Below are positions 16,702 through 52,863 of a DNA stretch of 64,000 nucleotides, one piece after another. The position numbers and the translations under genes are program-made. A model generated the notes under the pieces. That model ran no database searches, was not told the origin of the DNA, and saw only the letters and a list, made by a program, of their open reading frames with translations. The DNA lies in the NCBI RefSeq assembly GCF_030445035.2, contig NC_080677.1, positions 153,637,169-153,701,168 on the forward strand. Direction: 5' to 3'. This DNA is from Dasypus novemcinctus. Lineage: Eukaryota > Chordata > Mammalia > Cingulata > Dasypodidae. Each line of letters opens with the position of its first letter. Position 1 is the stretch's first letter.

Positions 16702-17055
16702 TGCATTAGCCAGCCAAGGGGTGCTGAGGCAAAGGATCAGAGCTCTGCCCGCGTTTATAAAGGGTATTTATTTGGGGTAAAGACTTACAGTCACAAGGCC
16801 CTAAAGAGTCCAACTCAAGGTCACTTCCTCCCCGAAAGTCTGTTGTCACCTGCTGAAGCAAGGTGGTGGACATCCCTGCGAGGGCTCAGCCCTCCTCTTC
16901 TTCTTAAGGCTCCATGGGCCCAGCTTCTCCCAGTCTCGGCTGTAGACTGGAGGGCTCGTCTCTTTCCCAGCTCTCTCAGCTGCTCTGGTCTCTTCACCAG
17001 GTCAGTTGTAAACTATCAGGTGAATGGCTCATCTTTCCCTGGGACTCCAGTGTCA
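16702..17055 (-). mobile_element. Partial ERVL-type LTR (U5 plus R)
   Basis: On the plus strand it begins 'tgcattagccagccaagggg', continues through the conserved 'tttataaagggtatttattt' block and 'gcaaggtggtgg', and loses similarity to the copy at 32064 after 'aatggctcatctttccc'. The sense strand is minus: TTTATT at 16767-16772 is the complement of the polyadenylation signal AATAAA. It lacks U3, so it is a truncated copy. No coding sequence is associated with it. Confidence 0.8.
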
Positions 17056-20380: not shown

Positions 20381-20397
20381 AAATTACTTATTGTGTG

Positions 20398-20763
20398 AGG
20401 GAAGCTGATGTGGCTCAAGCAACTGTGCTCCCGTCTACCACATGGGAGGTCCAGGATTCGATTTCCGGGGCCTCCTGGTGAAGGCAAGCTGGCCCGCGCA
20501 GGAGTGCTGGCCCATGCAGAGAGCTGGCACAGCAAGATGATGCAACAGAAAGAGACACAGAGGAGAGAAAAAAACAGACACAGCAGATCAGGGAGCTGAG
20601 GTGGTACAAGAGAATGATGGCCTCTCTCCCACTCTGGAAGGTCCCAGGATCAGTTTCCAGTGCTGCCTAAAGAGAAGACGAGCAGACACAAAAGAATGCA
20701 CAGTCAATGGACACAGAGAGTAGACAATGCGGTGGGGGCCACGTAAATAAATCTTTTTTAAAA
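20398..20763 (+). mobile_element. Dimeric DAS-type SINE
   Basis: A perfect 17-bp duplication (aaattacttattgtgtg) lies at 20381-20397 and 20764-20780. This is the longest perfect SINE duplication in the window. Module 1 has 'ggattcgatttccgg'. Module 2 begins near 20593 ('gagctgaggtggtac') with the B-box-like 'aggatcagtttccag'. The tail is TAAA then A-rich. Confidence 0.95.
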
Positions 20764-32063: not shown

Positions 32064-32704
32064 ATATTTTAGTCAGCCAAAGGGGTGCTGATGCAAAGTA
32101 TGGGAAATCTGTTGGGTTTTATAAAGGGTATTTCTTTGGGGTAAAAGCTTATAGTTACAAGGCCCTAACGAGTCCAACTAAAGGTTGATTTCTCACCCAA
32201 AGTCATTTGCCAAGTGTTGAAGCAAGATGGTGGACGATGTCTGCAAGTGTTCAGCCTTCCTCTTTCTTAAGGCTCCATGGGCCAGCTTCTTCCCACCTCA
32301 GCGGTAGGCTGGAGGGCTCATTTCTTTCCAGCTCAGTTGCTCTGGTCTCTTACAAGGTCAGCTGGAAACCATCAGGCAAATGGCTCATCTTTCTCCCCAG
32401 GGCCACAGGATCAAAGCTCTCTCCTCTGTTGTGTCTATGGAACTCTTTTCCTCTGTGTATTTCTTTTTCTGTGTTCTCCTTGAGTGAGCGTCCATTTATA
32501 TAGCCCACCAAAGGGGTGGGGACTCAATCTTGACCATGCCCTAATGACATGGTTGAATCGAGCCCTAATCATAACACAATCAAGTAAATGTAAAATCTTC
32601 GAGTTTAATACAACCAAAGGGTATCATGCCCAGAGGAACAGACCAGTTTACAAACATAATCATTGTCTCTTTTTGGAATTCATAAATAATATCAAACTGC
32701 CACA
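32064..32704 (-). mobile_element. Full ERVL-type solo LTR
   Basis: This is the most complete copy of the LTR family also seen at 16702-17055, 52209-52863 and 44366-44729. Sense strand is minus: U3 starts with the complement of 'caaactgccaca' (32704), a TATATAAA box lies at 32495-32502, and the 3' end reads back through 'tttataaagggtattt'. Near-matching 5-bp flanks (cgatg/agatg). The polyadenylation signal is mutated (complement of 'tttctttgggg'). No gag-pol sequence adjoins. Confidence 0.82.
32495..32502 (-). promoter_or_regulatory. TATA box of the ERVL-type LTR
   Basis: Minus-strand TATATAAA in the U3 of the LTR 32064-32704. The 5' end of the retrocopied LTR RNA at 44366 aligns about 25-30 bases downstream of it, consistent with a real start site. 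Present-day activity is unknown. Confidence 0.6.
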
Positions 32705-44021: not shown

Positions 44022-44365
44022 AAAGTTATTCTGAATGCATCTAAGGAAATGGATTTATTCATTATAGTGTTTAATGTTTTCAAAGGAAGGGAAGAAAAAA
44101 CTCTTTCAGTGTACATGGTCTGATGGAAAGGTTCCTGAACAGAAGCTATGTATGTTTGTTATGCAAAACACATTAAACCTCTTGCGTTGAAACTAGAAAA
44201 GTTTGAGAGAGGTCATTAAAAGGTATTGGGGGAAACAGCCATGGCTCTATCAGTTGGGCTCCCATCTACCATATGGGAGGCCCTGGGTTCGCATCCTGGG
44301 GCCTCCTTGTGAAGGCAGCTGGCCCACGCCCATGGAGAGCTGGCGCATCAAGATGACCCAGCCAA

Positions 44366-44744
44366 GAAACACAGAGTAGATACACAGAGGGAGACACCTC
44401 CATAGATACAGCAGTGGTCCCGGGAAGAGAGATGAGCCATTCACCTGAGAGTTTCCAGCTGATCTTGTGAAGAGAACAGAGCAGCTGAGCCTGGAAAGAA
44501 AGGAGCCCTGGGAAGAGAGACGAGCCTTGTGCTGCATGCAGCTGAGATCAGAAGAAGCTGCGCCCACAGAGCCTTAAGAGGAAGAGGAAGGCTGGACCCT
44601 CGCAGACGTCACCTGTCATCTTGCTTCAACACGTGGCAAGAGTTTGGTAAGGAAGTAACCTTGAGTTGGACTCTTCAGGACTTTGTATGTGTAAGCTTTT
44701 ACCCCAAATAAATACCCTTTATAAAAGCCAAAAAAAAAAAAAAA
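44366..44744 (+). mobile_element. Polyadenylated retrocopy of an LTR R region
   Basis: Flanked by a 16-bp duplication with one mismatch (aagatgacccagccaa / aagatgacccaaccaa) at 44350-44365 and 44745-44760. The 364 bases before the A-run align with the minus strand of 32114-32478, inside the ERVL-type LTR 32064-32704. The 5' end falls about 25-30 bases after that LTR's TATA box. The 3' end falls about 18 bases after AATAAA (44707-44712) and is followed by about 15 A. No U3, U5 or internal viral sequence is present. The structure is that of an LTR-started and LTR-terminated RNA inserted by L1-type machinery. Confidence 0.85.
44707..44712 (+). promoter_or_regulatory. Polyadenylation signal in the LTR-RNA retrocopy
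   Basis: AATAAA, with the A-run starting at about 44730. The same block is present as its complement at 16767-16772 and 52274-52279 in the solo LTR copies. Confidence 0.8.
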
Positions 44745-44870
44745 AAGATGACCCAACCAAAAAGGGAGACAGACAGACACAGAAGAACGCACAGCAAATT
44801 GACACAGAGAGCAGACAGCAAACAAGCCGGGGACGGGGAGGAGAGGGGAATTTTAAAAAAAGGTATTGGG

Positions 44871-52208: not shown

Positions 52209-52863
52209 TGTATTAGTTGGTGAAAGGCGTGCTGATGCAAAATACCAGAAAATGGTTGGTTTTATAAAGGGTATTTATTTGGGGTAGGAGCATACAGATA
52301 CCCGGCCATAAAGCATAAGTTACTTCCCTCACCAAAGTCTATTTCCACTTCTTGGAGCAAGATGGCTGCTGGTGTCTGTGAGGGTTCAGGCTTCCTGGGT
52401 TCCTCTCTTCCAGGGTCTTGCTTCTCTCTGGGCTCAGGTCCTCTGTTTTCGCCACAAGGTCACCTGTAGACTATGAGGCCTTCTAGGCTTTGCCTCTCTC
52501 CACAAGGTCAGCTGTAGATTATCAGGCAAATGGCTCTGTTTCTCTCCCTGGGGTTTCTGCTGTGTCTATGGAGCCATCTCTATTCCTCTGTGTTCTTCTC
52601 CTGGCTCCAGCTTAAGGCTTCAGCATCAAACTCCAACATCAAAATTCCAGCATCAAAAATCCTTGCATCAAACGCTCCAACTCTGTCTTTACCATGCCTT
52701 TTATCTGTGAGTCCCCACCCAACAAGAGGTGGGGACTCGATGCCCTAATGACGTGGCCCAATGAAAGTCATAATCATAACTCAATCATGCCCAGTAATAG
52801 ACCAGATTGCAAACATAATCCAATATCTATTTTTGGAATTCATAACCGTATCAAACTGCTACA
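52209..52863 (-). mobile_element. ERVL-type solo LTR, diverged subfamily
   Basis: Begins 'tgtattagttggtgaaagg' (TG at 52209) and ends 'atcaaactgctaca' (CA at 52863). TTTATT at 52274-52279 is the complement of AATAAA. It shares the 'tttataaagggtatttattt' block with 32064-32704. It has its own extra repeats: two near-copies of 'cacaaggtca(c/g)ctgtaga' and a triplicated 'atcaaa(c/a)(t/n)cca' motif near 52620-52680. Confidence 0.82.

What the first reader, a model, noticed from the sequence alone, without database searches (positions are those of the whole stretch)
44350..44760. SINE-like retrocopy made of only the R region of an ERVL-type LTR
Seen: a 364-base insert with an A-run, AATAAA 18 bases before the A-run, and a 16-bp target duplication, sitting inside a DAS SINE. 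It aligns with the minus strand of 32114-32478 in the solo LTR at 32064-32704. Its 5' end falls where transcription should begin (about 25-30 bases after that LTR's TATA box) and its 3' end where polyadenylation should occur. Known: L1 machinery inserts polyadenylated RNAs with such duplications. Inference: an LTR (perhaps a solo LTR) can start and end a very short RNA of its own, and this RNA was mobilised like a SINE. If it has many copies, it would be a SINE-like family descended from an LTR.
Basis: partly seen in the sequence, partly recalled or inferred. Interest (0 to 1): 0.75.

Follow-up and report, generated by a model that had tools for sequence, protein, structure and literature searches.

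The report
LINE-1 copies of LTR-only short RNA
A short RNA that seems to start and end inside the terminal repeat of an old virus-like element was copied back into this mammalian genome by LINE-1-type insertion, here and at eight other places I found, which suggests that such a repeat can make a complete small RNA of its own and that this RNA can be mobilised.

Summary
Window 44366-44729 is an LTR R region ending in A17, flanked by 16-bp repeats (14/16 identical), inside a DAS-like SINE whose empty site can be shown. The 20 closest relatives I read run on into U5; many are solo LTRs with 5-bp duplications.

A genome pattern search found 256 places (2 in the reversed control) where this poly(A) site is followed directly by an A-run. 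I read the 100 listed. A blind duplication search (26 of 100 pass, 2.4% of mocks) shows L1-type insertions with mixed 5' ends: truncations inside R, longer RNAs ending in an LTR, and a peak. Nine copies, the window's included, begin 27-33 bases after the first base of the TATA box, where Pol II should start: eight in one LTR subfamily, the window's in another.

So L1 repeatedly retroposed R-only RNAs. The copies lack the U3 promoter and do not form one clade, so they look like processed pseudogenes of an LTR transcript, not a self-copying SINE family. HERV-W processed pseudogenes and SVA's SINE-R are the nearest known things; recurrent R-only retrocopies are a new variant. Solo LTR versus proviral 5' LTR as source stays open.

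The parts
44220..44351 (+). host SINE (DAS-like, name recalled), 5' part before the insertion; start approximate
   Evidence: repeat copies elsewhere in window; empty site aligns to 20396-20588
44352..44367 (+). 5' copy of the target-site duplication (the last 1-2 bases may belong to the insert)
   Evidence: 14/16 identical to 44747-44762; blind duplication search score 11
44366..44729 (+). R-only LTR retrocopy, from the expected transcription start to the poly(A) site
   Evidence: 90% to U5-bearing LTR L009 over 1-364; start +30 from TATA
44707..44712 (+). AATAAA poly(A) signal
   Evidence: sequence
44730..44746 (+). A17 tail
   Evidence: sequence
44747..44762 (+). 3' copy of the target-site duplication
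44747..44860 (+). host SINE, 3' part after the insertion; end approximate
32064..32704 (-). LTR of subfamily 1 (TATA box near 32502, poly(A) site near 32114, U5 present): comparison copy, not the parent
52223..52863 (-). LTR of subfamily 2 (GATAAAAG box, U5 present), the type from which the other R-only copies found derive
16706..17045 (-). LTR fragment that matches R and U5 but not U3, without an A-run at the poly(A) site; not a poly(A) retrocopy

Best explanation
The insert is an L1-made processed copy of a complete short Pol II transcript. The transcript started at an LTR's own TATA-dependent start site, ran through R (inserts of 259-387 bases in the nine copies), was cut and polyadenylated at the R/U5 border of the same LTR, and was reverse transcribed at an L1 endonuclease nick. 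Shown here: the anatomy of the window copy; recurrence of the same start and end elsewhere in the genome; L1-type duplications. Inferred: that the shared start is the cap site, that Pol II made the RNA, and that solo LTRs were the main source.
For: 256 vs 2 pattern matches for poly(A) site plus A-run. Duplications found blind to LTR coordinates in 26 of 100 loci at score >=10 (three of these, L039, L103 and L128, are A-only or A-rich matches) against 2.4% of 1000 mock flanks. Offsets of 5' ends from the first base of TATA: L058 27, L074 28, L098 28, L082 29, L125 29, window 30, L063 32, and L048 33 (set by hand against the LTR in L044; the program gave 18 because its reference lacks a repeat unit). 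L047 near 29-30, its duplication seen by eye beyond an A-rich tail. With the window copy left out, 5 of 17 ends at score >=10 fall in 25-33, binomial p 7e-5 to 2e-4; 7 of 26 at score >=8, p 5e-6 to 2e-5. The flanks shown for the R-only copies differ; among 3' flanks long enough to compare, only L071/L079 repeat each other. Nick sites resemble TT/AAAA, mean 4.0 of 6 over 25 sites against 1.6 background (inflated because duplications were extended through A). U5-bearing LTRs of both subfamilies are present.
Against: No RNA data. Recurrence at the peak is shown only in subfamily 2; subfamily 1 has one copy there, the window's, and its other near-start copy, L084, begins at +14. L109 begins at +19, L073 at +2, and 10 of the 17 ends at score >=10 lie further inside R (60 or beyond; L107's place is poorly mapped). 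Duplication scores of 8 (L058, L074) are within reach of chance (8.5% of mocks), and L047 scored only 5 by program. The start window follows the canonical TATA distance but was fixed after I had seen the first sequences. One offset (L048) was corrected by hand.
Confidence: 0.85

Rival explanations
1. The copies are 5'-truncated retrocopies of long proviral or read-through RNAs whose 3' LTR ends at the same poly(A) site; the start at the TATA distance is chance.
For: Truncated copies exist (such as L092, L072, L041, L044, L076, L051, L070, L037, L065). Copies with U3 upstream exist: L030 and L049 have duplications near the LTR start, others far upstream of it, and LTR homology passes the TATA by more than 15 bases in 47 of 100 loci, some of these spurious.
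Against: The peak at +27 to +33. For the window copy taken alone, chance could not be excluded.
Confidence: 0.08
2. A true SINE-like family: one or a few R-only master copies kept amplifying.
For: One subfamily-2 clade of 7 rows (support 100/96) holds L048, L063, L082, L125 plus near-start L109, truncated L092 and U3-bearing L055.
Against: R-only copies lack U3 and TATA; the window copy pairs with LTR L009 at 100/100; L047, L074, L098 and L058 lie outside the 7-row clade (59 chosen rows, bootstrap not settled). U5-bearing LTRs of subfamily 2 exist, such as the one in L044, 88% to L048.
Confidence: 0.1
3. The RNA came from the 5' LTR of a provirus by premature polyadenylation, not from solo LTRs.
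For: Any LTR with start and poly(A) site in R could do this; nothing in the copies tells the two apart.
Against: Many sampled relatives are solo LTRs: exact 5-bp duplications at both ends in 8 of the 15 scored, L017 and L024 being near-identical copies. Splice-donor suppression of a 5' poly(A) site would be lost in solo LTRs (recalled).
Confidence: 0.35
4. An ordinary LTR fragment with a grown A-run and a chance flanking repeat.
For: LTRs of this kind are common here (7343 first-look candidates).
Against: Empty site, 14/16 duplication, and the genome-wide pattern.
Confidence: 0.01

Closest known systems
HERV-W processed pseudogenes
   Same: ERV RNA retroposed by L1, poly(A) tail, 5-15 bp duplications, TT/AAAA motif (PMC5016936 and PMC5537654; passages seen)
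   Different: Those copy a proviral RNA (R-U5 at the 5' end, U3-R at the 3' end), with an R of about 70-90 bases. Here the whole RNA is R, 259-387 bases. PMC5537654 calls HERV-W the sole HERV group specifically mobilised by L1; the LTRs here are, as far as I can tell from recall, of another group.
SINE-R part of SVA
   Same: LTR-derived sequence mobilised by L1 (PMC13174262, passages seen)
   Different: SVA is a composite that amplified as a family; no composite and no family amplification is shown here.
mRNA processed pseudogenes
   Same: start at the cap site, end at the poly(A) site, promoter not copied (recalled definition)
   Different: The template is a transposable-element LTR that provides both promoter and poly(A) site for a 0.3-kb RNA.

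Membership tests
L1-mediated processed pseudogene | poly(A) tail directly after a poly(A) site | tested here: met
L1-mediated processed pseudogene | target duplication of about 7-20 bp (range recalled) | tested here: met
   16 bp, 14/16; 26 of 100 loci vs 2.4% of mocks
L1-mediated processed pseudogene | TT/AAAA-like nick site | tested here: inconclusive
   mean 4.0 of 6 over 25 sites vs 1.6, inflated by the A extension; window site TC/AAGATG
L1-mediated processed pseudogene | full-length copies start at the transcription start | tested here: inconclusive
   nine copies at +27 to +33 from TATA, which fits; the RNA start itself was not measured
HERV-W-type ERV processed pseudogene | R-U5-internal-U3-R structure | tested here: not met
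   only R is present
SINE | promoter carried in the copy | tested here: inconclusive
   U3/TATA absent; T-runs of 4 or more within the first 26 bases in 7 of 8 subfamily-2 copies speak against Pol III; A and B boxes not scanned
SINE | copies descend from copies (a clade of their own) | tested here: not met
   R-only copies do not form one clade, window copy pairs with an LTR; 59 chosen rows, bootstrap not settled
solo LTR (ERVL-type) | U3-R-U5 with a 5-bp duplication | tested here: not met
   the insert has no U3, no U5, and a 16-bp duplication; relatives do meet it (exact 5 bp in 8 of 15 scored)
ERVL group | pol phylogeny of the internal region | not tested
   no internal region examined; 'ERVL' rests on the 5-bp duplication and on recall

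The most novel reading that the evidence does not exclude
A class of 'LTR micro-transcripts': solo LTRs with start site and poly(A) signal in one long R act as self-contained 0.3-kb genes, and in one LTR lineage of this genome such RNAs were L1 substrates often enough to seed a SINE-like set of copies.
Probability: 0.3. Interest if true: 0.72.

Novelty: new variant of a known kind. Interest (0 to 1): 0.55.

Why it matters
R-only retrocopies are fossil RNA ends: they can mark the start and poly(A) site of an LTR without any RNA data. They suggest that an LTR can both start and end a transcript within itself and that L1 copied such RNAs more than once. The same read-out could be applied to other LTR families with long R regions, to ask which LTRs were active in the germ line and how far an LTR can go towards becoming a SINE.

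Tried and rejected
Considered and dropped: A-run expansion in an ordinary LTR (empty site and duplication speak against it); random truncation (peak at the start site). L036, L038, L068, L087, L097, L040 and L094 carry, before the LTR part, what I take from recall to be an L1 3' end, with different joints; I read them as 3' transductions ended by an LTR poly(A) site, not as R-only copies. That identification was not tested against a library. U3-bearing copies that begin at or near the LTR start (such as L055, L116, L117) were not resolved; L109-L128 hold only about 460 bases upstream.

Rows dropped before counts: the window copy (L034) was left out of the binomial test. Eight loci with score >=10 were not among the 18 ends counted: L030, L039, L040, L049, L066, L078, L103, L128 (end outside TATA-to-poly(A), A-only or A-rich match, or start not mappable). 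At score >=8, L057 and L081 were also left out, as were L038, L043, L069 and L093. In one search the program put L048 at 18; I corrected it to 33 by hand. L047 was added to the nine by eye and is not in the binomial counts. An earlier, looser duplication search on 70 loci was replaced by that. L071 and L079 are one insertion twice and were not merged in the count of 100.

Limits: the list stops at 100 (51 without mismatch, 49 with one); 156 of 256 matches were not listed and not read. A count of U5-continuing LTRs and a search with the L048 R region did not complete, so there is no genome-wide ratio. Literature: 10 searches of the open PMC set; nine bear on LTR-derived retrocopies and one on DAS-SINEs. 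I saw listings only (titles and starts of abstracts), plus passages of PMC5016936, PMC5537654 and PMC13174262; no listed title or abstract start describes R-only LTR retrocopies. Most subscription papers are not held. Statements on Pol II start distance, splice-donor suppression, DAS and ERVL names are recalled.

Full report
What is there. Window 44366-44729 followed by A17 sits between 16-bp repeats (44352-44367, 44747-44762; 14/16 identical) inside a SINE-like repeat, and that repeat is continuous in another window copy once insert and one duplication are left out. AATAAA lies 17 bases before the A-run. The insert matches LTRs from about the expected transcription start to the R/U5 border.

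Relatives by identity. The best 40 genome matches include the window itself; I read 20 of the other 39 (L009-L028). All 20 run on into U5 (L017 and L024 are near-identical). Of 15 where both LTR ends could be found, 8 have exact 5-bp duplications, 3 more have 4 of 5, and L009 has 5 of 5 one base off. So by identity the insert looks alone: the relatives read are ordinary LTRs, many of them solo. The nearest is L009, 90% identical by BLAST, about 0.95 Mb away on the same contig.

Relatives by structure. A pattern for the poly(A) site followed by an A-run gave 256 places at up to 2 mismatches, against 2 for the reversed control. I read the 100 that were listed (L029-L128; L034 is the window copy; L071 and L079 share identical 3' flanks). 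A search for duplications that knew nothing of LTR coordinates found them at score >=10 in 26 of 100 loci, against 2.4% of 1000 mock flanks, and at score >=8 in 41, against 8.5%. Three of the 26 are A-only or A-rich matches.

Where the copies begin. Aligned to LTR copies with a visible TATA box, the duplication-defined 5' ends fall into classes. Some lie well inside R, as expected of truncation. Some lie far upstream: RNAs that read into an LTR and were ended there, including copies joined to what I recall as the L1 3' end. And there is a peak: L058 27, L074 28, L098 28, L082 29, L125 29, window 30, L063 32 and L048 33 bases from the first base of the TATA box, with L047 near 29-30 by eye. Eight of these nine are subfamily 2 (GATAAAAG); only the window copy is subfamily 1 (TATATAAA). 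Without the window copy, 5 of 17 ends at score >=10 lie in 25-33 (p 7e-5 to 2e-4) and 7 of 26 at score >=8 (p 5e-6 to 2e-5). Ends outside the peak: L084 at 14, L109 at 19, L073 at 2, and the other ends counted at 60 or beyond.

How it works. A TATA box about 30 bases upstream is where Pol II starts (established knowledge, recalled). The shared start is therefore best read as the cap site, and R as the whole RNA. T-runs early in 7 of 8 subfamily-2 copies argue against Pol III. Duplications of 11-16 bp, A-tails and TT/AAAA-like nick sites (with its caveat) are those of L1. The copies leave U3 behind, so they should be silent on arrival. A tree of 59 chosen R regions puts the window copy with LTR L009 (100/100) and does not unite the R-only copies, though one 7-row clade is rich in them; its bootstrap had not settled. 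U5-bearing LTRs of subfamily 2 exist, in the window (52223-52863) and in L044 and L059. L044 has a truncated R retrocopy inserted between the TATA box and the start of such an LTR.

Comparison. HERV-W processed pseudogenes (PMC5016936, PMC5537654; passages only) are L1 copies of proviral RNA with R-U5 and U3-R ends; the present copies fail that structure and are R alone. SVA's SINE-R is LTR-derived and L1-mobilised but composite (PMC13174262, passages only). In the listings of the nine searches named under Tried and rejected I saw no report of recurrent R-only retrocopies, in a library that lacks most subscription journals.

Verdict. The number of such copies is a lower bound: 9 of the 100 places read.

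Noticed in passing
L036, L038, L068, L087, L097, L040, L094: Retrocopies in which an L1-like 3' end (recalled) with an A-rich tail is joined, at different points, to an LTR part ending at the LTR poly(A) site: probable L1 3' transductions ended by LTRs.
   Followed up: partly
L044:1150-1752 (minus strand, approximate): A 106-base truncated R retrocopy inserted between the TATA box and the start site of an LTR of the same family.
   Followed up: partly
L055, L093, L116, L117: Copies whose LTR part begins at or next to the LTR's first base and ends in the poly(A) site plus A-run without U5; the 5' limits of the inserts were not resolved.
   Followed up: no
L066: Retrocopy with an exact 15-bp duplication whose 5' part is A-rich sequence that does not match the LTR.
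   Followed up: no
window 16706-17045: LTR fragment that matches R and U5 but not U3, without an A-run at the poly(A) site.
   Followed up: no
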